Of a stretch of 64,000 nt of DNA, positions 20,055 to 57,728 are shown one piece after another; within the stretch, counting starts at the first letter, position 1, and each line of letters opens with the position of its first letter. The notes below the pieces were generated by a model. The model did no database searches, was not told the DNA's origin, and worked only from the letters and a program-made list of their open reading frames with translations. The position numbers and the translations under genes are program-made. This stretch comes from Paenibacillus sp. FSL H8-0548 (lineage in GTDB: Bacteria > Bacillota > Bacilli > Paenibacillales > Paenibacillaceae): NCBI RefSeq assembly GCF_038630985.1, contig NZ_CP152049.1, forward strand, positions 5,104,501 to 5,168,500, read 5' to 3'.

Positions 20055-21191
20055 TTAATTCTGCATAACAAAATCAAGCTCAGCTTTGTCTAACTCATTG
20101 TATATTTTCAAAATATTATATTTTGTATCGCGCTGCGCAGGAATTTTGCCGCATTCGCGAATGAGCTGAAGGATGAGTTCGATATTTACTTTGTGCGTGG
20201 TGCCCGCGGCTGATACTACGTTCTCCTCAATCATCGTGCTTCCGAAGTCATTGCAGCCATAAGAGAGCGACAGCTTACCCATTTCTGGCCCCATCGTTAC
20301 CCAAGACGATTGGAAGTTCGGTATATTATCAAGCATAATACGGCTAGCTGCAACGATTCGCAAATACTCCTCAGGCTTCGCCTTCTCAAGCTTAAGATTC
20401 GTATTATCCGGCTGGAAAGGCCACGAAATGAAAGCCAAGAAGCCTGTTGAATCATATTGGTTAGCGATGCATTCATCTTGAGCGTCACGAATGCGCAGCA
20501 TATGTAATGCACGCTCTTCGACGGTTTCGCCAAGTCCATACACCATAGTCGCAGTCGTATTCATGCCATGACGGTGAGCAGACTTCATCACATCCATCCA
20601 ATCCGTCCACGAGCCCTTCATACGGCTGATCTTACGCCTAGTCCGGTCATCCAAAATTTCGGCGCCGCCGCCAGGCAATGAATCCAGCCCTGCTTCATGC
20701 AGCTGCCTAATGACCTCATCCAATGACAAACCTTCGGATACAACCTTCATCTTCTGAATTTCAGCTGGCGAGAAGGAATGCATCGTAATGTTTGGAAAAT
20801 GCTGTTTGATTTTGCGAAGCAGATCCAAATAATACGTAAACGACAAATTCGGATTTGTACCGCCTTGCATCAAAATCTCGGTGCCTCCAACGTCAATCGT
20901 TTCTTGAATTTTTGCTAATATCGTCTCATCCGGAAGAACATAACCTTCTTTAGAGCCTGGTGCGCGATAAAACGCGCAGAAACGGCAATAAACATCGCAT
21001 ACGTTCGTATAGTTTACATTACGGCCTACAACAAAGGTCGTGATAGGGTCAGGATGGTGTCTCAGCATAATCTGATTAGCCACATGTCCCATTTTCTCTA
21101 TTTGATCCGACGCTAACAGCTCCATGCCCTCTTCGAGCGAGACTCGCTCGCCGCGCAATGCTTTATCCAAAATATGGTCTAACGTTCCCAT
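20055..21191 (-). CDS. mqnC: Cyclic dehypoxanthinyl futalosine synthase, radical SAM
   Basis: 378 residues. The radical SAM cluster motif CDVYCRFC (CxxxCxxC) follows GRNVNYTNVC. Motifs of the MqnC/MqnE/CofH group are present (ILMQGGTNP, HSFSPAEI, LPGGGAEIL, ATMVYGLGET, SYGCNDFGSTMIEENV). MqnC cyclises dehypoxanthine futalosine in the alternative menaquinone pathway. GGAGG lies 8 nt upstream of ATG 21191. It is a single-gene unit; mqnA, mqnB and mqnD are not in the window. CofH or MqnE are the main alternatives, but the length and overall motif set favour MqnC. Confidence 0.9.
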   Translation of the reverse strand: MGTLDHILDKALRGERVSLEEGMELLASDQIEKMGHVANQIMLRHHPDPITTFVVGRNVNYTNVCDVYCRFCAFYRAPGSKEGYVLPDETILAKIQETIDVGGTEILMQGGTNPNLSFTYYLDLLRKIKQHFPNITMHSFSPAEIQKMKVVSEGLSLDEVIRQLHEAGLDSLPGGGAEILDDRTRRKISRMKGSWTDWMDVMKSAHRHGMNTTATMVYGLGETVEERALHMLRIRDAQDECIANQYDSTGFLAFISWPFQPDNTNLKLEKAKPEEYLRIVAASRIMLDNIPNFQSSWVTMGPEMGKLSLSYGCNDFGSTMIEENVVSAAGTTHKVNIELILQLIRECGKIPAQRDTKYNILKIYNELDKAELDFVMQN

Positions 21192-23717: not shown

Positions 23718-24635
23718 TTAAATGCCTGAACCTAGATCATAAGGTGTCTGTTGATACACGTAGTAGTTAAGCCAGTTCGAGAACAAAAGGTTTGCATGTG
23801 CACGCCAGCTGGATACCGGCACGCCTTCCGGATTATCTCCCGGGAAATAATTTTTCGGAACATCTATGCTCATCCCTTTGGCTTTATCTCGGTCATACTC
23901 ATACTTAAGCGAGGTTGGATCATATTCTGAATGGCCGGTAACATAAATTTGCTTGCCGTCCTTTGACGCAACGATATATACGCCAGAGTCAGCTGACTCT
24001 GACAAAATATCCAACTCTTCAATCTGCTCAATATCCTCGCGGCGCACCTCAGTATGACGAGACTGCGGTACAAAAAACATTTCATCGAAGCCGCGTAGCA
24101 GGTTCACATTGCGTTTTTCGATTGTATGAGGGTAAACGCCGAACATTTTTTCATCTAAATTATATTTAGGTATATTGAAATGATGGTATAAACCCGCTTG
24201 GGCCGCCCAACAGATATGGAACGTAGAAGTTACACGCCTAGCGCTCCAGTCCATAATTTCTTTGAGCTCTTCCCAGTAATTCACTTCATCAAAAGGCATA
24301 TGCTCAACTGGCGCGCCGGTAATGATCAGCCCATCATAATACTCATGCGAAATTTCATCGAACGTTTTGTAAAAGGATTCCAGATGATCGGCTGATGTAT
24401 TTTTGGACGTATGTGTTCTTGGGTGCAGCAGCACGACTTCAACCTGAAGCGGCGTATTCCCGATCAGTCTTAATAACTGTGTCTCTGTTGTTTCCTTCGT
24501 CGGCATTAAGTTAAGAATGGCAATGCGAAGCGGTCTAATATCCTGTTGATAAGCGACGCTCTCGTCCATGACGAAAATATTCTCATTGTTTAAGATTTCT
24601 TTAGCCGGCAGGTTGTCGGGTACTTTAATTGGCAT
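23718..24635 (-). CDS. metA: Homoserine O-acyltransferase (MetA type, predicted acetyl-specific)
   Basis: About 305 residues, starting [15 protein letters not shown] as in MetA, with AGGAG upstream of ATG 24635. It transfers an acyl group to the hydroxyl of homoserine, the first committed step to methionine. The catalytic Cys is in [10 protein letters not shown]. In the motif [15 protein letters not shown] the residue after Val is Glu, where E. coli MetA has Gly; known work on B. cereus MetA links this Glu to acetyl-CoA use. It is the first gene of the metA-metI-metC operon. Confidence 0.93.
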
Positions 24636-24674
24636 TATCTTCACTCCTCTTTAGGCAGTATGACCGCTTGAACA

Positions 24675-24848
24675 TGAAAAAGACCCTTTCTGCTGTGAGA
24701 AAAGGTCGTATGCTCAATAAATAAGCCATCCGCCTCTCTCATCTCTCAGAAACATAAATGTTTCCGCAAGAATTAGCACCGTACGTATTGTACGCCGGTT
24801 GCCGGGCTTCATCGGGCTAGTCCCTCCGCCTGCTCTTGATAAGAAAGT
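24675..24848 (-). ncRNA. SAM-I (S-box) riboswitch upstream of metA
   Basis: Minus-strand conserved elements in order: CTTATCAAGAG, GGAGGGACT, CCCGATGAAGCCCGGCAACC, GGTGCTAATTCTTGC and GAGAGATGAGAGA. A terminator hairpin (GACCTTTTCT...AGAAAGGGTC then TTTTTC, 24706-24677) follows. SAM binding should stabilise the terminator and reduce metA-metI-metC expression. Confidence 0.95.
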
Positions 24849-34822: not shown

Positions 34823-36163
34823 CTAACCAATTGTAATTTTACCTTCTGGATACCGGTACAATTCTTTTTCTGTACGAGGCCCTAGCGCGTAAGCTAACGT
34901 CAGTGGGCCTAGTCGTCCGGCAAACATCGTAAATGCAATCACTATTTTTCCAACTGCGCTTAACTCGGGCGTAACACCTATCGATAAGCCTACCGTGCCG
35001 AATGCCGAGGTAGCTTCGAACAACAAAAACAAGAATGGCTGCTTCTCCGTCATGGACAGGACCATCGTTGCGATAATGACAAGTCCTAGTGAAATCAACG
35101 TAATCGTCAGCGCTTTAAAAATTCTATCCTTGCCGAGCCTATGCCGGAAAAACACGATGTCCTCGCGTCCGCGAATCATGGCAAGCACTGCACCGACCAA
35201 GGTCGTAAAGGTAGTCGTCTTAATCCCGCCGCCTGTGGAGCCTGGAGAGGCGCCAATAAACATCAATATAATGGTGAAGAACATCGTCGCCTGCCGCAGC
35301 GCCGTATAATCAAGCGTATTGGCACCCGCGGTCCTCGGCGTTACCGATTGGAAGAAGGAGGACAAGATTTTCCCACCAAAATCCATGGAACCAAGCGTCT
35401 TCGTATTGGAAAACTCGAATATAAAAATAACGATCGTGCCCACAGCAATTAACGTGCCCGTCATCGACAATACAACCTTGCTGTGCAATGAAAGCTTCCG
35501 TTTTTTGTTATATTCCATTAGATCCGATAGAACGATAAATCCTAAGCCGCCAGTAATAATAAGCAGCACAGCTGTTAAATTGACCATTGGGTCGGAAGCA
35601 TACTCCGTTAAGCTGCGATACTCGCCAAAAATATCAAACCCGGCATTATTAAATAAGGATACCGCATGAAATGCGCCAAAATACAAGGCTCGACCAAGCG
35701 GCATATCAAAAGCAAATCGAATAGCAAAAAGCACAGCACCTGCAAGCTCAATCGTTAAGGAATAAACGATTACCCGCTGAATCAGACGCACGATGCCTTC
35801 CATACTCGTCTGATTCATCGCTTCCTGAAGCAAAAGCCGCTCACGCAGTGAAATCCTTTTGCGCAGCGCAAGTGCTACCAAGGTGGCCATCGTCATGAAG
35901 CCTAGACCGCCAAGCTGAAATAAACACATTAAGATGACTTGACCAGGAACGGAAAAATAGGTTCCCGTATCGACGACAACCAGCCCTGTCACACAAGTGG
36001 CCGACGTCGCTGTAAACAGCGCATCGAGAAAAGGCAGCCGCTGCCCCTCTACCGATGCAAATGGCATGGATAATAACAGAGCACCCAGTAATATAATAAG
36101 AGCAAACCCACTGACAAGTATCCGTGGGGGCGACCACTTTAGAACATTCCAGTTTACCTTCAT
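34823..36163 (-). CDS. ktrB: Ktr potassium-uptake channel subunit (KtrB/TrkH type)
   Basis: 446 residues. Four M1-P-M2 repeats form the K+ pathway, with pore-loop sequences TSATCVTGL, NNAGFDIFG, GASPGSTGGGI and TSAFGTVGLSIG. The four pore motifs are intact. KtrB works as a dimer with an octameric KtrA ring. It is the first gene after the c-di-AMP riboswitch. Confidence 0.95.
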   Translation of the reverse strand: MKVNWNVLKWSPPRILVSGFALIILLGALLLSMPFASVEGQRLPFLDALFTATSATCVTGLVVVDTGTYFSVPGQVILMCLFQLGGLGFMTMATLVALALRKRISLRERLLLQEAMNQTSMEGIVRLIQRVIVYSLTIELAGAVLFAIRFAFDMPLGRALYFGAFHAVSLFNNAGFDIFGEYRSLTEYASDPMVNLTAVLLIITGGLGFIVLSDLMEYNKKRKLSLHSKVVLSMTGTLIAVGTIVIFIFEFSNTKTLGSMDFGGKILSSFFQSVTPRTAGANTLDYTALRQATMFFTIILMFIGASPGSTGGGIKTTTFTTLVGAVLAMIRGREDIVFFRHRLGKDRIFKALTITLISLGLVIIATMVLSMTEKQPFLFLLFEATSAFGTVGLSIGVTPELSAVGKIVIAFTMFAGRLGPLTLAYALGPRTEKELYRYPEGKITIG

Positions 36164-36211: not shown

Positions 36212-36412
36212 CATAAAAAAAAGCACTGAAACTCAAGTGCTCTGTGCGATGAGTCCTGTTCCAGATGCCTACGAGGTTAGCTGTCGGATTCGGGCCTGGA
36301 CAGGCAGCCCTATTTTGCAGCAGGATAAATCCCGCTTTAAAAATTCACCCCATGCTGTCAATGCTGACAGCTTTATGGTTCCCCCGTTTTCCTTAGGAAA
36401 TTCGGCGTAGCT
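36212..36412 (-). ncRNA. ydaO/yuaA-type c-di-AMP riboswitch upstream of ktrB
   Basis: On the minus strand the conserved elements are in order: CGGGGGAACCA, GGGGTGAA, an AGGGCTGCCTG...CAGGCCCGAA segment and CCGACAGCTAACCTCGTAGGC. A terminator (AGCACTTGAG/TTTCAGTGCT, then T8 at 36220-36213) closes it. c-di-AMP binding is expected to turn off ktrBA, in line with c-di-AMP lowering K+ uptake at RNA and protein levels. Confidence 0.92.
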
Positions 36413-36475
36413 ATGCGATTAGTATGATGTTAACGATTATAATCCCAAAGCGGTCTTAATTTAAAGGAGGGCTTT

Positions 36476-36662: not shown

Positions 36663-38294
36663 ATGATTGATTCAATTAAGCCTAGCGAATGGAAACGTTT
36701 TCTATGGGCTGCTGTAGCTTGCTTTATTATTTATGCCGGAGTTGAGATTTATCCAATGATCTCTTCAATGATTTCCGGTGAATTGAACATGAAGGTCATT
36801 GAAAAATCCACAGCCGAGAACAGAGCCGCTGCCTTTGCTGAGAAGGAAACCGGAATAAAGGTGAAGTCAGCCAAAGCGGTACACCAAACCGATAAAATCT
36901 TTTATGGCTATTTATCCAAAAACAAGCTGCTTGAAACGTACAGCGACAAATTTGACCAAAGCTTTCCAACGGATACCTATCAGGTCGATTTGAAATTTAC
37001 AAATGGCAACTACGGGCATGTATATGTTCATATGCAAAGCGAAAAAATTGTCGCATGGAATCTGAAAGTCTCTGGAGAGGAGCTAACTGAAGCCGATAAA
37101 ACCAAAGATATCATCGCTTTTCTGACCGCACAAAGCTTCAGTGGTATCGATTTTAATAATAGTCAGATTAATTCAGCAGGGGAATGGCAGGGTAAGGCAT
37201 CCGAGAAATACAGCATCGAAGAGGCTAAACTCGCTCTTACTGTCGATGCTATAAGCTTGAATGGTAGAACTGTGATTACTAAATATAAGCCTGCCTTCGT
37301 TGCTCCTGATGACTATATCAGCTATGTGAAAAATCAGGATAAAATAGCGGGTTACCTAACCGGCTTCGGCTACTTTTTAATGAGCTTCGTGCTATTTGTT
37401 CTCGCCATTATTTATGCCGTATTATACCGAAGATTTACATCGTTCAAATACGGAGTTATTTTGACCATCGTCTATTTTATTACATATCTAATCATGAATT
37501 TAAATGTGCTGGACGGCATTCGAGCCTCGCTCGGGGAAAATGAAATCGCTGGCCAAGCGACGATGATTACTGCAATCTTCACCGTTCTGCTAACCATACC
37601 GATGGCTGCATCCATCTACTTCTCGATCGTCGCGGGCGATGCTCTCTGGAAGGCGCAGGGCCGCTCGTTGTGGCCGCGTTTTGGACAAAAGGGCTACGGC
37701 GACTATGTTTGGCGCAGCGTCGGATTAGCTTATTTGTTCGCGATCATTCTATTCGCGGTGCAGGCCGTTATCTTTATCGGTTTAAAGCTATCGATCGGTA
37801 CCTGGGATACAACAGACGTTACGCAGTCTCCGTACAATATCGGTATTTTGTGGCTCATGCCAGTGCTCGCTTGGGCTGCCGCTATTTCTGAAGAGGCTGT
37901 ATTCCGCTTCTTCGGTATCGGATTATTCCGCAAATGGTTCAAAAACACGTTCGCTGCAGCGCTGCTGCCAACCTTGTTTTGGGCGCTTGGGCATGTGACC
38001 TATCCGTTCTATCCATCTTCGACAAGGTTGATCGAGCTGATCATTATCGGACTGGCGTTCAGCTTTATTTTTGTCAGATACGGCTTCATTACAGCGATGT
38101 TCACACATGCTATCTTTAACAGCATAGCCGTGGGCCTATCCTTGCTCACCATTGGCCAGGCACCAAATATCATCTCAGCCATCTTTTTCTCGGTGCTGCC
38201 TGTCATCATAGCTTTTGTACTGAAATATTTCAGCCACAAAAAAGAGAAGAAACCGCCAGTTACGACGGCTCCTCCTCATTTAGAGCAGCTATAA
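36663..38294 (+). CDS. CPBP-family intramembrane metalloprotease with extracytoplasmic N-domain
   Basis: 543 residues. TM1 (about 12-33) is followed by a soluble region of about 190 residues (about 40-225) with features of PepSY-like domains, then about eight TM helices. CPBP (Abi) active-site motifs are E410-E411...R415 (SEEAVFRFF), H444 (WALGHVTYP) and H482...N486 (THAIFNSI). Relatives include Rce1 and bacteriocin-immunity proteases; substrates are usually unknown. GAGGTG precedes ATG 36663. Its stop lies 35 nt inside the convergent uvrC gene. Confidence 0.87.
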
Positions 38295-40991: not shown

Positions 40992-42983
40992 TTAGCTTGC
41001 GTTCACTTCACTAGGCAATGGCTTGGAATAAGCTCCTCTTGACCCGCTTCCCATCAAATAAGGATACAATAATATAAGTCCGAGCACATAAAGCAGCAGC
41101 GCAAATAATGCCGGAGATAGATGCAAAAAATCAACATATCCAATAGATAAATGTACGCTGAGGCCCGCATAAAAGCCTGGAATTCCCCCAAGCAGAAGCG
41201 TCCACCATAACCATCTTGCTCCCGGCTGAATCCCCCATAAGGCAATGATCAGAATAGCGAGCGCATCGCATAGAAGCGCGCCGCCAAAGCCCGCTCTATC
41301 ATGAGCGATCAGCGGAATCAGCTTCAAATTCGTTTCGTTCAGCTCGGCATGCGAGGTGTTCAAATAAACAAGATCCGACTGAACGAACACCTGCGAAATA
41401 CCAACCCCCGAAATCGTTAACCCACCAATTGCGAGCGCAAAGCCTAGTACAACTAAGCATAGCTGACCCCACATCGCACGGCGCCACGTCGAATCATTCC
41501 TTACATTGACAGGCAACCGATATGGCTGATCCGGATTTCTTCGCATCGATAGCAGAAACATCGGTAATAAGAGAACAGCGGCAAGTGCATGCAGCGGATC
41601 AAAATAGCCATAGCCAAGGTACAAAAAGAAGCTCAAAAAACCAACTATTCCCGATACAGCCAGCGCCGTCCTCGCCCAGTGGAGACCGTGCCGCAATCCA
41701 TGCCTAGCAAGCTGAAAATAAATAATTCCTATGGAGATCATCGTGCCCGAGAGCGTAATTCGATCATGGGACATAAAATGCAGCAAATTGTGGTTCACCA
41801 GATGCAGCTCGTCCAACGTCATATTTAAAAATAACAAATCGTAAGGCAGCAGTACCGTCGTTGCTGCAACTATCCAAGAGATCACGCCACCGATAATCAT
41901 CCCGATGCCAAGCAGGCACATCCAGCCCCAATGCTTCCAGAAGGAAGGTGCCGTCTGGGCCGGCTCATGCTGAATCTGCTCGTAGATGATAGCCTCATTC
42001 ATTCTCTTCGGCAGCCCTGGCCCTGCATAAACGAGACCGCTATGAAGCATAATCGCATTCGCGCCAGCCTGCAGCAGGTCCAGCGCATCCTGCGGCTCAT
42101 GTGCGCCACCACCGGCCTTAATGATGAAATCAGATGTAATAGTATCTTGGCTGCGGAGAAGCTTTATTTTGGACAAGGTAGACGCTTTAGCAGCTTTCCC
42201 TACCACTGAGCGATATCCTTCTTCTGCTCCAGCACAAATCGCCTCGCCAATAACTACTCCACTCCACATCTCCAGCCCCGTTATATCCAGCAGCGCGACA
42301 AGCTGCTCATCTGGAAGCTCCGGAGGAACATATAGAAATAAAGGCTTCTTCTGATGGGGTTGCGATGATCGATAGCTAGACAATCCTGTTAGGATAGCTG
42401 CAGCATCTGCCCAGCTCCGTGAAGCCTGCAGCACATCAACGTAAAAGCCAGCTGCCCCAGCATCGCTTAGCTTGATCAGCAGCCTTTCAAGCTCATGAAG
42501 AGCCTGCTCAGGCGCAGCGAGCGGCATTGGCGATATACGCGCCAGCTGCGGCAGCCGATGCCTGGGCTTTGCGATATATTCAGCGAATCGCTCTCCCCCT
42601 TCATTCTCAAAGTAATTCGGATATTGAATATTTTCGTGTGCGATGTCATTCACGATCGGCACAGCATTGTGAATAGGCGCTATCGTAATCGGTCCATATT
42701 CAATGAAACCAATTCCGAACTGCGCTAAGGCTCCATGCGCTATCGCTTGCGGGTCTAATCCGCCGGACAGCCCAATGGGCGTTTCGACAGCAATGCCTGC
42801 TAAGCTCCGCTTCAGCAGCGGTGACGGCTCCATGTGGCCAAGCGTCTTAATAACGAATGTGCCGCCTGGTATTTTGCTTAGTGTACCGATTGCTGTTAAG
42901 GTTAGTGCTCTGCTCAAACGGGATGGAAGCTTAAATAAAAGCGGTCGAAACAACGTTTGGTACGACCAATCCGGCATCGTCAT
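40992..42983 (-). CDS. DHODH-derived domain fused to a duplicated four-helix membrane domain
   Basis: 663 residues. Residues 1-335 resemble class-2 dihydroorotate dehydrogenase: an N-terminal helical region, ETPIGLSGGLDPQAIAHGALAQFG-type strand 1, GFIEYGPITI, and the C-terminal FMN-phosphate region IIKAGGGAHEPQDALDLL with SGLVYAGPGL. The Lys of the GLDKNG motif is replaced (GLDPQA) and the NxSSPNTPGLR catalytic segment is not seen (VDVLQASRSW). Residues 349-480 and 503-640 are two homologous units of about four TM helices, each with LN-x-T...EL...N, then HDR (406-408 and 561-563), and GF...GY-x-D-x-LH. No neighbour suggests a pathway. I do not assign pyrD. Confidence 0.8.
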   Translation of the reverse strand: MTMPDWSYQTLFRPLLFKLPSRLSRALTLTAIGTLSKIPGGTFVIKTLGHMEPSPLLKRSLAGIAVETPIGLSGGLDPQAIAHGALAQFGIGFIEYGPITIAPIHNAVPIVNDIAHENIQYPNYFENEGGERFAEYIAKPRHRLPQLARISPMPLAAPEQALHELERLLIKLSDAGAAGFYVDVLQASRSWADAAAILTGLSSYRSSQPHQKKPLFLYVPPELPDEQLVALLDITGLEMWSGVVIGEAICAGAEEGYRSVVGKAAKASTLSKIKLLRSQDTITSDFIIKAGGGAHEPQDALDLLQAGANAIMLHSGLVYAGPGLPKRMNEAIIYEQIQHEPAQTAPSFWKHWGWMCLLGIGMIIGGVISWIVAATTVLLPYDLLFLNMTLDELHLVNHNLLHFMSHDRITLSGTMISIGIIYFQLARHGLRHGLHWARTALAVSGIVGFLSFFLYLGYGYFDPLHALAAVLLLPMFLLSMRRNPDQPYRLPVNVRNDSTWRRAMWGQLCLVVLGFALAIGGLTISGVGISQVFVQSDLVYLNTSHAELNETNLKLIPLIAHDRAGFGGALLCDALAILIIALWGIQPGARWLWWTLLLGGIPGFYAGLSVHLSIGYVDFLHLSPALFALLLYVLGLILLYPYLMGSGSRGAYSKPLPSEVNAS

Positions 42984-43431
42984 TCTCCTTATCCAAATCT
43001 CAATTGCTTTACACCATTCTAGAAAACAAATAAGCGTTGTGCAATATAAAGCTTTGCGAAGGTTTTACAGAAAAGGATAAATGTGATACTTACGCTTTCC
43101 TATATTTCAGAACAAAATCACCCTTACGGATGATTGGAAATCGCGGTCGCGTCAGCTCACACTTCTAACGGAAACCACAGACGCTAAATCGCCTTTATTT
43201 TTCGTTTCAAGATTCTAACGGAAACACGCGCCTCTATTTGTACCCTACATGCCCGATTTCGCTTCATTTCTGAGGAATAGTGTCTCTGGCTTCCGTTAAA
43301 ATGTGACGCTAACCCAAAATGCAACTTTAGCGTCTCTGGCTTCCGTTAGCTTTCGTTATCTGCTCACTGGCTGCTGCCGTAGCATCATGATCAACAGGTT
43401 CAGAGGATGCATAGTTTCCTATACACAAATA
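42984..43431. other. Non-coding spacer upstream of the DHODH-fusion gene
   Basis: It contains the GCTTTCCTATATTT copy (43094-43107) and the nested inverted repeats at 43163-43350; no gene was found. The promoter of the DHODH-fusion gene should lie in 42990-43080. Confidence 0.5.
43163..43350. repeat. Nested inverted repeats, four copies of a TAACGGAA motif
   Basis: Copies in one direction at 43163-43185 and 43213-43232 (TTCTAACGGAAAC...), and in the opposite direction at 43280-43299 and 43330-43350 (GCGTCTCTGGCTTCCGTTAG). Copy 1 and copy 4 pair at 18 of 20 positions, and copy 2 pairs with copy 3. It could fold into a long branched hairpin of about 190 nt. Confidence 0.65.
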
Positions 43432-43465
43432 AAACGACTCTATGCCCGTAGGCATAGAGTCGTTT
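43432..43465 (-). terminator. Terminator of the sulfate uptake operon
   Basis: AAACGACTCTATGCC/GGCATAGAGTCGTTT, a perfect 15-bp stem with a 4-nt loop, about 58 nt past the stop of the YezD-like gene. Confidence 0.8.
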
Positions 43466-43523
43466 CTTAACGTATGATGATCATTCGCTCTAATCCATTA
43501 CGCCCCTTTATCGAATAAAGGAA

Positions 43524-43792: not shown

Positions 43793-44677
43793 TTAATCGG
43801 TTACTTCTACTGACTTTTGTTGGCCGGACTTCCATTCCACTATGCTTTTCACGATCAAAGTAACGACCGCAAGCATAACTAGCAAGGAAGCAACGGCGAA
43901 TGAAGCCGAGAATTGATACTCATTGTACAAAATCTCAATATGCAGCGGCAGCGTATTCGTTTCTCCGCGAATATGGCCTGAAACGACCGACACAGCGCCA
44001 AATTCGCCCATTGCACGAGCATTACATAAGATTACGCCGTACAATAATCCCCATTTGATATTAGGCAAGGTTACCTTCCAAAAGATTTGCCAGCCCTTAG
44101 CGCCTAAGCTCGCGGCTGCTTCCTCCTCTTGGACACCTTGTGCCTGCATAAGCGGAATAAGCTCACGGGCTACAAAAGGAACGGTAACGAACACGGTGGC
44201 AAGCACGATACCCGGAACAGCGAATATGATCTGAATGCCCCGCTCATCGAGCCAAGGTCCGAGAAAGCCTTGTGCGCCAAACAGCAGCACATAAATCAAG
44301 CCCGAAATGACTGGCGACACAGCGAATGGCAAATCGATTAATGTTATCAAAATATTTTTGCCGCGAAAACGAAATTTGCTTATGGCCCAAGCGGCTGCCA
44401 CGCCAAAAACCGTATTGACAGGAACAGCGACCAAGGCAACGATCAATGTAAGTTTAAGTGCCGATAAAGCATCGGGCTCCGTAATAGCGGCGATGTATAC
44501 GCCTACGCCCTTCTTAAAGGCTTCAATGAACACCGATGCCAGCGGCAGCAGCACGACGAGTGCTAGAAACAGCAGCGCAATTCCAATTAATATCCATTGT
44601 ACAGGAGCAGACTCTGTAACATGTTTCGGGCGTTTCGATGCTTCATTATTGGTATGAACCGTAATTGCTCCAGCCAT
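43793..44677 (-). CDS. cysW: Sulfate/thiosulfate ABC transporter permease CysW
   Basis: 294 residues, six TM helices. The permease EAA motif is visible near the centre of the C-terminal half ([31 protein letters not shown]). It pairs with CysT to form the channel; energy comes from a CysA-type ATPase that is not encoded here. It is located 18 nt after cysT. Confidence 0.92.
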
Positions 44678-44695
44678 AGTGATGATGCTCCCTTC

Positions 44696-45529
44696 TTAGT
44701 CCGATACTGTGCGGCGATTCATTCGCCACTGCAGCAAATTAATGACTAGCAGCATGAGGAAGGAAACAACCAGCATAACGAGAGCAATGGCAGTAGCACC
44801 CGCATAATCGTACTGCTCCAACTTCGTCATAATAAGCAGCGGCGTAATCTCTGTCTTGAGGGGCATATTGCCGGAAATGAAGACGACCGAGCCGTACTCT
44901 CCGATGCCTCTTGCAAATGCCAGCGCAAAGCCGGTTAAGAGTGCTGGCATGAGCTCAGGCAATATGACCTTCCAGAAGGTTCGCAGCCGATAGGCGCCAA
45001 GCATAACTGCCGCTTCCTCCGTCTCCTTCTCCATATCCTGCAGCACCGGCTGCACAGTACGAACGACAAACGGAAGACCTATAAAGATTAGGGCTATCGT
45101 AATTCCGATTGGAGTGTACGCAACCTTAACGCCTAATGGAGCGAGCAACGAGCCTACCCATCCGTTTGGGGCATAAATAGCCGTTAAGGCTATGCCTGCT
45201 ACTGCTGTTGGCAGTGCAAAGGGCAAATCTACAAGGCTGTCAATGATCTTCTTTCCCGGAAACCGATAACGCACCAGCACCCATGCGATCAATAGGCCGA
45301 ACACGGCATTAACCAGCCCTGCAAAAAAAGCGGTAAAGAAACTGATCCGATAGGACGCAACGACACGCGCATTCGTAATCGTACTCCAAAACTCGGACCA
45401 AGTGAGCTCTGTCGTTTTGAAAAAAACGGCAGTCAGCGGAATCAGAACGATGAGGCTCAGGTAGAACAATGTAAATCCTAGTGATATGCCAAAACCCGGA
45501 AGAACGTTACGGGACTTGGAACCTTTCAT
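44696..45529 (-). CDS. cysT: Sulfate/thiosulfate ABC transporter permease CysT
   Basis: 277 residues, six TM helices, with the EAA motif [30 protein letters not shown]. It has the [23 protein letters not shown] segment typical of CysT/CysU. It is encoded 34 nt downstream of the binding protein. Confidence 0.92.
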
Positions 45530-52852: not shown

Positions 52853-53866
52853 TCATTTCTTCTGTAGCACTTCATTTTTCCATTTCGTTATTAAACGCTC
52901 ACGATTGCTTCCTGCCCAATTAAAGTCATAGGTTATAACATTTATGGATTGAAGTGAAATAGCTTCCTCTGGCGGTATAGCATCCTGATTTGTAAGCATC
53001 TGATAGTTGCCAACCTGCTTGCCGATTTCTTGAGCCTGCTTAGTCAGTGACCAATCGACGAATTTCCGGGCTTCTTCCATGTTCGGCCCATTCTTAATAA
53101 TTCCGACTCCGCCGATCTCATAGCCTGTCCCTTCCTTCGGAAACGAGATGACGATGTTTTGAAAGCCTTCCTTGTACAATTTAATGGCATCATGCGAAAA
53201 AGCAATTGCTGTTCCGACATCTCCCATGCCTGCGGCCCGTCCAGATGTGCTTCCGGAGCTCGTGTATACCGGACTTAATTGATTCAGCTTACGAAAATAG
53301 TCAAAGCCCTTCTCTTCCCCAAGCAGCTGTATGATCGTAGCAAGCACCGTATATCCTGTTCCGGATAAATTCGGTGAACCCATTGCGATCATTGTACGAT
53401 ATTCAGGCTTTAATAGATCCTCCCATGATTGCGGTACACTAAGCCCGGTCTGCTGAAGCCATGTCTTGTTAGAAATAAATGCTATCGAGCCAATATAAAT
53501 ACCCGTCCAGTAGCCTTCGGCATCCTTGTATTCCGGATCTATCATTCGTGCATTTATTGATTCATAGGGCTCAAGCAAGCCTTCCTGCTTAGCTTGAACG
53601 AAAGTATCCGCTGTTCCGCCAAACCAGACACTAGCGTTCGGATTATCCTTCTCCTTGCGTATGCGCTCCAGCACCTCTCCAGCAGACAATCTGGTGTAGG
53701 ATACTTTGATCCCCGTTTCCTTCTGAAACATTTCTATCGCTCTAATGGCATGATCCTCATACAAGCCTGCATAAATAACAAGACTTCCTGAAGATTTCAT
53801 GCTGCAAGAAGCTAGAAAGAGAGTAAGGATAGCAAGCAGCAACACACTTCGTATCATACGTATCAT
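52853..53866 (-). CDS. ABC transporter substrate-binding lipoprotein (FbpA/AfuA type), second copy
   Basis: 337 residues. The signal peptide ends in the lipobox LFLASCSMK. The type II periplasmic-binding fold contains LVIYAGLYEDHAIRAIEMFQ, VWFGGTADTF, DAEGYWTGIY and TSSGSTSGRAAGMGDVG. It is a paralogue of the protein at 56664-57728 (common motifs DHA-AI, GGxADTFVQA, GYWTG, PEEA/PEQA). It is the fourth and last gene of the ABC operon. The substrate could be iron, a phosphonate or a sugar phosphate; nothing in the sequence decides. Confidence 0.85.
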   Translation of the reverse strand: MIRMIRSVLLLAILTLFLASCSMKSSGSLVIYAGLYEDHAIRAIEMFQKETGIKVSYTRLSAGEVLERIRKEKDNPNASVWFGGTADTFVQAKQEGLLEPYESINARMIDPEYKDAEGYWTGIYIGSIAFISNKTWLQQTGLSVPQSWEDLLKPEYRTMIAMGSPNLSGTGYTVLATIIQLLGEEKGFDYFRKLNQLSPVYTSSGSTSGRAAGMGDVGTAIAFSHDAIKLYKEGFQNIVISFPKEGTGYEIGGVGIIKNGPNMEEARKFVDWSLTKQAQEIGKQVGNYQMLTNQDAIPPEEAISLQSINVITYDFNWAGSNRERLITKWKNEVLQKK

Positions 53867-53903
53867 TGCTTCCCCTCCCCCTCTTTCTTTATGGCCTTAT
53901 CAT

Positions 53904-54965
53904 TTAAATGACGTGCAAAGAATGTTCAGCGAATTGAAGAGATACACGTTCGCCTTCTTTGAAAACATTTTCTTGAACCGGATTATGCTCAGAAATTTGA
54001 ATGATCTGTCCGTCATATTCCACTTCATACTCCTGGGAACGACCCATAAATACACTTTTTTGCACGACTCCAATATGAGTTTGACCTCTTGTTAGCGATA
54101 CGGCCTCAGGACGAATAACGACAGTTACATGATCATTCACCTTAAAGCCGGTTCGGAACACCTTTAACACTCCAGATGCTGAGCTAACCAGTATATGATC
54201 CGATTCTACAGCCTTTACGACTCCATCAATGAAGTTTGCTGTGCCGATAAAGTCCGCTACAAACTTTGATTTAGGTCTTTGATAAATTTCCATCGGACTG
54301 CCATACTGCTCAATTTTCCCTTTATTCATAACGATAATTAAATCGCTCATGCTCATCGCTTCGCTTTGATCATGCGTTACATAAATGGCTGTAATGCCAA
54401 TTTGCTGCTGTATTCTGCGAATTTCATCCCTCATGACAACTCTAAGCTTTGCATCAAGATTGGACAAGGGCTCATCGAATAAAAGCACCCCAGGCTCCAT
54501 AACAAGCGCGCGTGCCAACGCAACACGCTGCTGCTGACCGCCAGACAGCTGAGACGGCATCCGCTCTTTATAATCCCCTAAGTTCATAATATCCAGCACA
54601 CCGTTAACCTTCGATAAAATCATATCTTTGGATAACTTTTTAATTCGAAGGCCATATGCAATATTATCAAAAATATTCATATGCGGGAATAACGCATAGG
54701 ATTGGAATACCATCGTGCAATCGCGCTGGTTAGGTGGAATATCATTTACTTTCTCATCACCAAAATAAATTTCTCCATCGGAAATTTCCTCAAAGCCTGC
54801 TACCATGCGGAGCGTTGTCGTTTTACCACAGCCAGAAGGACCGAGCAGCGTAACGAATTGACCAGCCTTTATTTCAAGATTGACATCCTCAACCGCATAT
54901 TTCGATTTACCTTGATCTGTGCCATATGATTTGCAAATGTTTTTTAAACTAACTGTTTTTGCCAT
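53904..54965 (-). CDS. ABC transporter ATP-binding protein (FbpC/PotA type)
   Basis: About 353 residues. Walker A is GPSGCGKTT, the Q-loop is VFQSYALFPHM, the signature is LSGGQQQRVALARA, Walker B is GVLLFDEPLSNLDA and the H-loop is VTHDQ. A C-terminal TOBE-type domain (about 240-350) follows. AGGAGG lies 6 nt before ATG 54965, and the gene overlaps the permease gene by 17 nt. It energises the permease encoded upstream. Confidence 0.93.
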   Translation of the reverse strand: MAKTVSLKNICKSYGTDQGKSKYAVEDVNLEIKAGQFVTLLGPSGCGKTTTLRMVAGFEEISDGEIYFGDEKVNDIPPNQRDCTMVFQSYALFPHMNIFDNIAYGLRIKKLSKDMILSKVNGVLDIMNLGDYKERMPSQLSGGQQQRVALARALVMEPGVLLFDEPLSNLDAKLRVVMRDEIRRIQQQIGITAIYVTHDQSEAMSMSDLIIVMNKGKIEQYGSPMEIYQRPKSKFVADFIGTANFIDGVVKAVESDHILVSSASGVLKVFRTGFKVNDHVTVVIRPEAVSLTRGQTHIGVVQKSVFMGRSQEYEVEYDGQIIQISEHNPVQENVFKEGERVSLQFAEHSLHVI

Positions 54966-56622
54966 ATTGTTTCCTCCTATTCGTTCCACTCAGCCAATTC
55001 ACCAACAAGTTCAACAATATTAGCGCGATCACCATAATAATGATAAGAATGGTACAGTAAGCACTGGCAGCGCCAATACGTCCGGCTTCAACTTGAGCCA
55101 TAATGGATGCTGTAATTAGGTTGTATTTAGCTGATATTAGAAAGATTACCGCGCTCATAGCTGTCATGCTTTTTACAAAGCTGTTCACTAGCCCGCTGAA
55201 AAAAGCAGATTTTATTAACGGCAATACCACACTTGTAAATACCTTCGTCTGGCCTGCCCCCAAATTAGTAGCCGCTTCTTCAATGCTCGGATCTATTTGC
55301 TGCAATGCGGCTACACCAGATCTTATCCCTACCGGCATTGCACGTACAACGAAAGCTGCGACGATAATGATACCAGTCCCCGTCAGTGCCAAAGGAGCTT
55401 TGTTAAAAGCAAGAATGTAGCCAATACCGATTACCGTACCTGGAACTGCGATAGACAGCATGCTTACGGCTTCGAGTGCCTTCTTGCCGACGAACTTTTT
55501 ACGAACGATTAAATAAGCAAATATCATACCTAGCAATCCAGCTATCGGAGTCGCAATTAAAGCAAGCATCAATGTGTCCTTAATCGCTTTCTCACCGAGG
55601 GTTAGAACATATTTATAGTGATCCAGCGTAAAGCTGTTGTTTATCCCCCAAAGCTTGATAAACGATCCTACTGGAACTAATGCATAGAAAGCAATAACGA
55701 CAACCGTAATGATCAAACAAATAACGAACAGAACATTTTTAATGGGCCCTGACTCGATCATGCGACGAGCACCCGTAGGTTTCCCCGTAACCGTTACATA
55801 GCTTTTTTTGCCGACCCAGAAGTTTTGCAAAATATAAATAATAATCGTAATCGTTAACAGAAGCATTGCGAGCGCTGCGCCTGCTTGCATATTATAACTT
55901 CCGACAGCTTGCAGATAGATTTCACGAGCAACCGTCGAATAGTTTCCTCCAATCGTCATCGGATTGCCGAAATCGGCAAGCGATTGGACGAAAACGAGCA
56001 GAAACGCATTGGCAATCCCCGGAATGGAGAGCGGAAGCGTGACAGAAACGAACGTTTTCCATTTGCCTGCGCCCATATTTTGACTCGCTTCTTCAAGCGA
56101 AGGGCTGATCGAACGTAGCAGTCCAGATAACGTAAGAAAGGCTATAGGAAAGAAAGATAACGTTTGAACAAGTACTAGACCGTGCAGACCATAAATGTTG
56201 GCATTTTCAAATCCGAATAAATGTTTCGTTATTAAACCTTGTTTGCCTAACAAAAGCATAGCGGATAGTGCGATTACAAATGGCGGTGAAATAACCGGCA
56301 GGATAGCAATGGCATTAAACAACCTTTTAAAAGGAACATTTACATAAGCAAAGGTATAAGCAAACATATAGGCAATTGCAGTAGACAACGTTGCAGAAAT
56401 CGTGGCTAATAGTAAAGAGTTAGTCAGGGAGCGAAATAGCCCCCCGCCTGACAACACCCTCTCATAGCCTTCCATCCCGAATTGCCCATCGTTCCCCGCA
56501 AAGCTTGATTTTAGTATTTGAAACAAAGGGAATACTATAAATACAACTAAACTGAGCGTGACCAACACGATTAAAATCGGCAGGAGCGGCTCGCGCTTGA
56601 ATCTTTTAAACATTGCGCTCAT
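54949..56622 (-). CDS. ABC transporter permease, fused double (FbpB type)
   Basis: 557 residues, about twelve TM helices in two homologous halves. Each half has an EAA motif: EEASQNMGAGKWKTFVSVTLPLSIPGI and EEAATNLGAGQTKVFTSVVLPLIKSAF. This single-chain double permease is characteristic of the Fbp/Afu family. It is co-transcribed between the first binding protein and the ATPase. Confidence 0.93.
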   Translation of the reverse strand: MSAMFKRFKREPLLPILIVLVTLSLVVFIVFPLFQILKSSFAGNDGQFGMEGYERVLSGGGLFRSLTNSLLLATISATLSTAIAYMFAYTFAYVNVPFKRLFNAIAILPVISPPFVIALSAMLLLGKQGLITKHLFGFENANIYGLHGLVLVQTLSFFPIAFLTLSGLLRSISPSLEEASQNMGAGKWKTFVSVTLPLSIPGIANAFLLVFVQSLADFGNPMTIGGNYSTVAREIYLQAVGSYNMQAGAALAMLLLTITIIIYILQNFWVGKKSYVTVTGKPTGARRMIESGPIKNVLFVICLIITVVVIAFYALVPVGSFIKLWGINNSFTLDHYKYVLTLGEKAIKDTLMLALIATPIAGLLGMIFAYLIVRKKFVGKKALEAVSMLSIAVPGTVIGIGYILAFNKAPLALTGTGIIIVAAFVVRAMPVGIRSGVAALQQIDPSIEEAATNLGAGQTKVFTSVVLPLIKSAFFSGLVNSFVKSMTAMSAVIFLISAKYNLITASIMAQVEAGRIGAASAYCTILIIIMVIALILLNLLVNWLSGTNRRKQYGKNS

Positions 56623-56663
56623 ACAAGCTCTCTCCCCTTTCAGGATGTTAAACTAGCTAATTA

Positions 56664-57728
56664 TTATTTGCTTACATCTGAATTCCATTTATCAATGATA
56701 CGTTGACGCTGCGAGCCAGCCTCTGCAATGTCATAATCGATGAGAGTGATTTTGCTCATGTCCACAGCTTGTTCAGGACCTACTGCATCGCGGTTCGTAA
56801 TATTTTGGAAGCTGCCCACTGTTTTACCGATTTCTTGTGCCGGAGGCGACAAAGCCCAGTCAACGAACGCTTTAGCAAGATCTTGGTTTTTCGAGTTTTT
56901 GATGATGCCAATCGAGCCTGTTTCATAACCCGTACCATCTTCAGGGAATGACATAACAAGATTATCGAAGCCTTCTTCTTGGTACTTGATAATGTCATGT
57001 GCGAACAAGATGCCTACGCCGGCTTCGCCCATGCCGACCATACGTCCAGGTGCCGCTCCGCTGGTTGTGTACTGCTGTACTTGGGGATGAAGCTGTTTCA
57101 AATAATCAAAGCCCCTCTCTTCATCGCCAAACGCTTTAAGAATACTGTAAATCGCTGTATACGCTGTTCCTGATGAGGCAGGAGAAGCCATTACAATTTC
57201 ACCTTTAAGCTTCGGATCAGTCAAATCAGACCATTTGGTTGGAGCTTCAAGCCCTTTCTTTGCCAAAAACTCTTTGTTGGATGCAAAAGCAACCGCCCCT
57301 ACATAAACGCCTGTCCAGTAACCATCTGGATCTTTATATTTGGCCTCAATTTTATCTGCTACAGGAGATACATAAGGCTCCAGCAGGTCTTCCGTTACAG
57401 CTTGTACAAAAGTATCGGCAGGGCCGCCGTACCAAACGCTTGCTTGGGGATTATCCTTTTCCGCACGTATTTTAGCTAAAATTTCACCAGCGGACATCCG
57501 AATCATTTCAGCTTGAATGCCTGTGTCTTTCGTAAATTGATCAATAGCTTTAACGGCATGATCCTCTTGGAATCCGATATAAACGGTCAGCTTTCCTTTT
57601 GGTTTCGAAGCTTCAGGCTGGCCTGTGCTGTTCGCAGCATTGCCTGCGTTCCCATTTGAACTACAACCTACGAACATTGTCGCTGCTAATGCAACTGTCG
57701 CTAATTTCCCAATCCAACTTTTCTTCAT
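56664..57728 (-). CDS. ABC transporter substrate-binding lipoprotein (FbpA/AfuA type), first copy
   Basis: 354 residues. The signal peptide ends in FVGCSSNG, a lipobox Cys. Binding-domain motifs are LTVYIGFQEDHAVKAIDQF, VWYGGPADTFVQA, GYWTGVYVGAVAF and TSGAAPGRMVGMGEAG. A Ser/Gly/Asn linker follows the lipid-anchor Cys. GGAGG precedes ATG 57728. It is the first gene of the operon and a paralogue of the fourth. An A/T-framed dyad at 57803-57825 lies upstream. Confidence 0.87.
   Translation of the reverse strand: MKKSWIGKLATVALAATMFVGCSSNGNAGNAANSTGQPEASKPKGKLTVYIGFQEDHAVKAIDQFTKDTGIQAEMIRMSAGEILAKIRAEKDNPQASVWYGGPADTFVQAVTEDLLEPYVSPVADKIEAKYKDPDGYWTGVYVGAVAFASNKEFLAKKGLEAPTKWSDLTDPKLKGEIVMASPASSGTAYTAIYSILKAFGDEERGFDYLKQLHPQVQQYTTSGAAPGRMVGMGEAGVGILFAHDIIKYQEEGFDNLVMSFPEDGTGYETGSIGIIKNSKNQDLAKAFVDWALSPPAQEIGKTVGSFQNITNRDAVGPEQAVDMSKITLIDYDIAEAGSQRQRIIDKWNSDVSK

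What the first reader, a model, noticed from the sequence alone, without database searches (positions are those of the whole stretch)
40992..42983. DHODH-derived protein fused to a duplicated membrane domain with conserved HDR motifs
The N-terminal 335 residues retain the FMN-phosphate region of class-2 DHODH (GGGAHEPQDAL, SGLVYAGPGL) but have GLDPQA for GLDKNG and lack the NxSSPNT catalytic segment. The C-terminal 290 residues are two homologous units of about four TM helices, each with LN-T...EL...N, HDR and GF...GY-D-LH in the same order. A true pyrD would not need this. I infer a membrane-bound flavin or ligand-binding protein with a different reaction; the paired HDR motifs may form one site at the interface of the two units.
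Basis: partly seen in the sequence, partly recalled or inferred. Interest (0 to 1): 0.72.

Follow-up and report, generated by a model that had tools for sequence, protein, structure and literature searches.

The report
Membrane protein with retired DHODH domain
A bacterial membrane protein, found in many genomes but apparently undescribed, has as its front half a pyrimidine-making enzyme fold without its catalytic residues, while its back half is a duplicated membrane domain with nearly unchanging paired charged-and-histidine sites that probably do the real work.

The parts
40992..42977 (-). CDS, 661 aa from the family start MPDWSY (the longer ORF starts at 42983)
   Evidence: PDWSY in 37 of 38 relatives
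42985..42990 (-). ribosome-binding site AAGGAG, 7 nt before the ATG at 42977
   Evidence: read directly
43016..43043 (-). promoter-like site TGCACA-16-TAGAAT (weak; the scan found 7 in the region where shuffles gave 4.8)
43431..43466 (-). terminator-like 16-pair hairpin between cysW and the gene; suggests a separate transcript (the scan found 5 where shuffles gave 3.8)
41979..42983 (-). residues 1-335: class-2 DHODH fold with the N-terminal helical cap; reactive residues replaced
41049..41936 (-). residues 350-645: 8-TM membrane domain, no named family
   Evidence: pLDDT 93.8, pTM 0.92
41544..41936 (-). unit 1 (residues 350-480): four TM helices
41049..41492 (-). unit 2 (residues 498-645): four TM helices
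41760..41768 (-). H406 D407 R408 (308, 306, 308 of 308)
41589..41591 (-). H465, start of TM4 (307 of 308)
41295..41303 (-). H561 D562 R563 (308 of 308 each)
41151..41153 (-). H611 (308 of 308), no His counterpart in unit 1
41121..41123 (-). H621, start of TM8 (307 of 308)

Best explanation
A solitary membrane protein whose working part is the C-terminal tandem 4+4-helix domain. SHOWN by sequence: the DHODH-derived barrel lacks the class-2 DHODH reactive residues, and the membrane domain is clearly better conserved. PREDICTED from loop charges and the model: the barrel sits inside the cell; D382, HDR 406-408, H465 and D537, HDR 561-563, H611, Y616, H621 lie near the outer face. INFERRED: each unit holds a cofactor between the HDR histidine (TM2, TM6) and the PLH/FLH histidine (TM4, TM8), most likely a b-type haem, with D and R placing propionates or moving protons; the pair works on quinol or a small substrate at the outer face, in the manner of haem A synthase. 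The barrel is a cytoplasmic cap or docking part that some relatives have shortened or lack.
For: Conservation in 308 domains and in both units. Mean identity to the window protein in 83/4/43 Bacilli proteins: N-domain 48.9/36.7/31.6 %, C-domain 67.1/56.8/46.3 %; columns at least 95 % conserved: 33 of 342 (five of them, PDWSY, lie in the motif used to pick the rows) against 64 of 301. N-domain under 250 residues in 12 of 143 true-start proteins. Mean net loop charge: TM2-3 +1.8, TM4-5 +3.0, TM6-7 +1.0, C-terminus +1.1; TM1-2 -1.7, TM3-4 -1.0, TM5-6 -1.7, TM7-8 -0.9 (from the K+R and D+E means). His at domain positions 65, 124, 220, 280 on helices 2, 4, 6, 8; CtaA of this genome has conserved His at 61, 127, 216, 281 (and 185) in 311 residues. 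Cox15/CtaA: 8 TM, two 4-helix bundles, four invariant His, active site predicted on the outer (IMS) side (PMC7140478, section 3.3.2 read).
Against: No haem, metal or activity is shown. CtaA's profile does not match (P 0.2 %, E 0.27; by halves E 0.23-0.62, while CtaA's own halves match at 2e-19). CtaA's Glu three residues before its first His is absent here. CtaA (6a2j, held in the PDB copy) was not among the rows shown by Foldseek or VIA. An invariant D right after the His is unusual for a haem ligand (recalled). H611 breaks the 2+2 pattern. Barrel positions G71, D77, G90, G97, G321, P322, G323, K326, R327 are invariant in 131 Bacilli proteins, so the barrel may still do something. hmp beside the gene in one clade is the only haem-related neighbour I identified.
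Confidence: 0.35

Rival explanations
1. The outer-face D/HDR/Y/H clusters bind metal ions (Zn, Fe, Cu) and form a membrane-embedded hydrolase or lipid-headgroup enzyme; the two units make one two-metal site.
For: Clusters of invariant D, H, R and Y in both units; membrane enzymes with outer-face Asp/His/Arg sites are common (recalled).
Against: The window's domain matches no Pfam or NCBIfam family; no lipid or cell-wall gene was seen to recur among the neighbour clusters I looked at (most neighbours were not identified).
Confidence: 0.2
2. One reading: a membrane-bound flavin or ligand-binding enzyme with a new reaction in the barrel, the HDR motifs adding to its site.
For: Phosphate loop kept in 35-38 of 38 close relatives; within that group the replacements are themselves conserved (Y121 37 of 38, Y218 36 of 38, acid at 183 in 38 of 38); an S175-column Ser in 17 of 38.
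Against: Those replacements are not kept in other Bacilli; the barrel is strongly shortened or missing in other relatives; HDR sites lie on the opposite face by the charge rule.
Confidence: 0.15
3. A transporter or channel (for example for an oxyanion or small acid) with the HDR pair as its outer gate.
For: Two direct 4-TM repeats; sulfate ABC genes lie next to it in the window clade (window and 6 of 80 fetched loci) and, divergently and of another subtype, in an unrelated family (L187); a chromate transporter is the second gene downstream in Cytobacillus spongiae.
Against: In 53 of 54 further Bacilli loci where the gene was found (one is the window's own), no neighbour cluster lies near it in more than 6; the neighbours were noticed after the fact; no meaningful fold match to a transporter.
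Confidence: 0.15
4. A sensor or assembly factor: the outer site senses a ligand and the barrel signals or docks partners inside.
For: Patchy, solitary gene; hmp and a Crp/Fnr regulator lie beside it in one clade (13 and 12 of 80 loci; one protein of each scanned).
Against: Some relatives have little or no barrel; this pair was not seen in the other lineages' recurrent neighbours.
Confidence: 0.13
5. A second, working dihydroorotate dehydrogenase.
For: Class-2 fold; some records carry that name.
Against: Eight reactive positions replaced in the window protein; no NxSSPN loop; 110 bits against a cut-off of 267; another PF01180 protein at E 4.4e-89 in the genome.
Confidence: 0.02

Closest known systems
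Class-2 (quinone-dependent) dihydroorotate dehydrogenase, PyrD (1f76, E. coli)
   Different: K66, N111, N172, S175, N177, K217, N246, T247 all replaced in the window protein; fused to 8 TM helices; the barrel is strongly shortened in 12 of 143 true-start relatives.
Haem A synthase CtaA/Cox15 (PF02628; 6a2j)
   Same: About 310 residues, 8 TM, two homologous 4-helix units, one His on each of helices 2, 4, 6, 8 near the outer face (PMC7140478).
   Different: No profile similarity; HDR instead of ExxHR; extra invariant Asp, Tyr and His; not shown to bind haem.
8xqw chain O (subunit of the Chlamydomonas Ycf2-FtsHi complex; protein name not found)

Membership tests
Class-2 DHODH (PyrD) | DHODH barrel with N-terminal quinone-site helices | tested here: met
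Class-2 DHODH (PyrD) | Catalytic Ser in the NxSSPNT loop | tested here: not met
   loop motif in 0 of 318 proteins; Q186 in the window protein (Ser at this column in 17 of 38 relatives, loop not conserved)
Class-2 DHODH (PyrD) | Lys and Asn that hold FMN and orotate (K66, N111, N172, K217, N246) | tested here: not met
   P, Y, D, Y, E in the window protein
Class-2 DHODH (PyrD) | FMN phosphate loop (G297, S319, G320) | tested here: met
   35, 35, 38 of 38; S319 is S in only 5 of 43 of the other Bacilli
Class-2 DHODH (PyrD) | NCBIfam equivalog cut-off | tested here: not met
   best 110.4 bits against 267
Class-2 DHODH (PyrD) | FMN content and DHODH activity | not testable with these tools
   needs purified protein
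Haem A synthase (CtaA/Cox15) | 8 TM as two homologous 4-helix bundles | tested here: met
   (prediction)
Haem A synthase (CtaA/Cox15) | Four invariant His on helices 2, 4, 6, 8, outer side | tested here: met
   (H465 and H621 307 of 308, the other two 308 of 308); side by loop charge only
Haem A synthase (CtaA/Cox15) | ExxHR motif with catalytic Glu | tested here: not met
   FMSHDR and LIAHDR in the window protein; the 30 CtaA sequences have E58, H61, R62 at 100 %
Haem A synthase (CtaA/Cox15) | Sequence-profile kinship | tested here: not met
   P at most 0.3 %; positive control (CtaA halves) P 99.2 %
Haem A synthase (CtaA/Cox15) | Same three-dimensional fold | tested here: inconclusive
   6a2j not among the listed rows; no direct superposition possible
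Haem A synthase (CtaA/Cox15) | Bound haem | not testable with these tools
   needs purified protein
8xqw chain O | Common fold | tested here: inconclusive

The most novel reading that the evidence does not exclude
An undescribed family of two-bundle haem (or metal) redox proteins with outer-face sites, in five bacterial phyla by record names, that reached the haem A synthase layout independently or diverged from it beyond recognition. It captured a class-2 DHODH, silenced it as a cytoplasmic cap, and in at least one lineage has whittled that cap to as little as about a third of its size, so stages of losing an enzyme domain can be seen in living species.
Probability: 0.25. Interest if true: 0.72.

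Novelty: new variant of a known kind. Interest (0 to 1): 0.5.

Why it matters
About a fifth of sampled genomes in the window's own family (61 of 295) and in another Bacilli order (42 of 199) carry a match. Some records label the protein 'dihydroorotate dehydrogenase', although the residues for that reaction are gone; the label can mislead pathway models. The membrane domain has paired invariant outer-face sites and no named family; if it binds haem or metal it is a new bacterial redox or metal enzyme. Relatives with full, shortened and apparently absent barrels make the loss of an enzyme domain testable.

Tried and rejected
Repeated shrinking of the barrel: my first tree (114 rows) needed 4 changes for the shortened form, but it contained fragments wrongly labelled as lacking a barrel. 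A second, quicker tree of true-start rows (101 rows) puts the 12 strongly shortened proteins in one group (support 76, long-branch warning); the second change there comes from one row (L182) whose label is an artefact of the domain hit. So one origin of the strong shortening is not excluded, and I dropped 'several times'. Bacillales barrels are moderately shorter (278-309 residues in most of the 53 rows).

The barrel-less clade: 23 metagenome rows, support 99/90, starting from 20 residues inside the domain model to 41 before it; 6 of them begin at offset 17 exactly. Negative offsets are probably fragments. One row with a barrel end (P0152) has its nearest relative in this clade, and no DNA was available to see whether a separate barrel gene lies upstream.

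Single-unit (4-TM) relatives: a search with both units as a profile (208 proteins at E <= 0.001, best 120 listed) gave, in the 16 sequences I read, apparent fragments or truncated frames and no clear single-unit protein.

Conserved partner gene: neighbours of the 80 fetched loci and of 54 further Bacilli loci (53 with the gene found, one of them the window's own) were clustered. Apart from the gene itself, no cluster occurs in more than 14 of the 80 loci or lies within four genes in more than 6 of the 54. Sulfate ABC, OsmC, hmp/Crp and chromate-transporter neighbours are each local to one or two lineages and were noticed after the fact.

Literature: five searches of the PMC library combining dihydroorotate dehydrogenase with fusion, membrane, pseudoenzyme or Paenibacillus terms returned 0 papers; they were strict combinations. 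Two searches on Ycf2-FtsHi were seen as listings only and named no chain O. led to PMC7140478 (passages; section 3.3.2). Two papers asked for by identifier, meant for 8xqw (identifier from memory) and 6a2j, were not held.

Weak points of my counts: the 318 proteins are the best 120 of each of two searches, 82 ORFs of the cluster and 2 plasmid proteins, less duplicates, the window's own included; 10 were left out of the 308 as incomplete. The 131 rows and the 143 were picked by the PDW start, so that motif's conservation there is by construction. The 'paeni' group also holds a few rows from other families.

Full report
1. Observation. The ORF at 40992-42983 (minus) encodes 663 residues. An AAGGAG lies 7 nt before the second ATG and 37 of 38 aligned relatives start with PDWSY after the initiator, so the protein probably has 661 residues. 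A 16-pair terminator-like hairpin at 43466-43431 separates it from cysW upstream, and a weak promoter-like site lies at 43043-43016, so it is probably transcribed alone.

3. The barrel is the less conserved part. In 131 full-length Bacilli proteins (picked by the PDW start) the N-domain is on average 48.9, 36.7 and 31.6 % identical to the window's in three groups (83, 4, 43 proteins), against 67.1, 56.8 and 46.3 % for the C-domain; 33 of 342 N-domain columns (five in the picking motif) but 64 of 301 C-domain columns are at least 95 % conserved. The old ligand columns drift: Y218 becomes A or S, Y121 becomes F, G or L in other Bacilli. What stays in the N-domain includes G71, D77, G90, G97 and G321, P322, G323, K326, R327, so part of the barrel is still under constraint. 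Among 143 proteins with a PDW start, 130 have an N-domain of 320 residues or more, C. spongiae has 280, and 12 have 119-245, among them Mycobacterium branderi (191) and Nonomuraea (243; name from the source). The 12 group together on a tree of true-start rows (support 76), so one shortening event is enough. A clade of 23 metagenome rows (support 99/90) has no N-domain, with the caveats under Tried and rejected.

5. Spread. Source names show Mycobacterium and Nonomuraea (Actinomycetota), Thermoanaerobaculia, Myxococcota and Dormibacteraeota. Matches in pieces or covering only part of the domain in G564, G458, G387, a second place in G531, G634 and G950 hint at decay or assembly breaks; I did not follow them.

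6. Neighbours. In the window's clade sbp-cysT-cysW lie upstream (window and 6 of 80 fetched loci). cysT/cysW of a different subtype also stand divergently 233 bp away in an unrelated family (L187). hmp and a Crp/Fnr gene lie beside it in one Paenibacillus clade (13 and 12 of 80). An OsmC-family gene ends 2 nt before it in L185, with similar-looking genes also upstream in L182 and L196 (only the L185 protein was scanned, E 7e-29 but below the cut-off). No neighbour recurs widely (at most 14 of 80 and 6 of 54 loci). The gene seems to stand alone.

7. Mechanism. The layout (two homologous 4-helix units, one His on each of helices 2, 4, 6 and 8, outer side) is that of haem A synthase. The review PMC7140478 (section 3.3.2 read) gives for Cox15/CtaA eight TM helices, two 4-helix bundles joined by about 20 residues, possible gene duplication, four invariant His, and an active site predicted on the IMS side. 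CtaA of this genome has conserved His at 61, 127, 216, 281 (and 185); here they are at 65, 124, 220, 280 of the domain, plus 270. Yet profile comparison finds no kinship (E 0.27 whole, 0.23-0.62 by halves) although CtaA's own halves match at 2e-19, and the ExxHR glutamate is missing. I therefore propose that it works like a two-haem or two-site bundle of the CtaA kind (0.35) but do not call it a CtaA. A metal-site enzyme, a transporter, a sensor, or a barrel that still binds a ligand remain open.

8. Novelty. Five searches of the held PMC library returned no paper; they were strict term combinations and most subscription papers are not held. The front half is a known fold in a silenced form; the back half has no named family. 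I rate it a new variant of a known kind, with a possibly new membrane domain.

Noticed in passing
window 36251-36417 (-): c-di-AMP riboswitch (85 bits) just upstream of a KtrB-like potassium transporter gene 34823-36163 (-) (gene name from inspection).
   Followed up: no
window 24736-24845 (-): SAM riboswitch (83 bits) upstream of a MetA-like gene 23718-24644 (-) (gene name from inspection).
   Followed up: no
window 20055-21191 (-): MqnC (futalosine menaquinone route) passes its NCBIfam cut-off (478.8 against 428.1 bits).
   Followed up: partly
window 52853-57728 (-): Two related PhnS2-like binding proteins flank a fused PhnU2-like permease and an ATPase-like gene; the PhnS2/PhnU2 scores are below the NCBIfam cut-offs, so the substrate is uncertain.
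   Followed up: partly
window 38260-38294: uvrC (-) and a CPBP-protease-like gene (+) overlap tail to tail by 35 bp (names from inspection).
   Followed up: no
L187:10323-11965 and window 43793-45529: Sulfate ABC permease genes stand next to this gene in two unrelated lineages, in different orientation and of different subtype.
   Followed up: partly
L185:7223-7651: An OsmC-family gene ends 2 nt before the start of the family gene.
   Followed up: partly
L088:11323-12840: Mycobacterium branderi plasmid copy with the barrel cut to about 190 residues; an IS110 transposase gene lies just downstream.
   Followed up: partly
G564, G458, G387, G531; G634, G950: The family gene is matched only in pieces or in part; decay or assembly breaks.
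   Followed up: no
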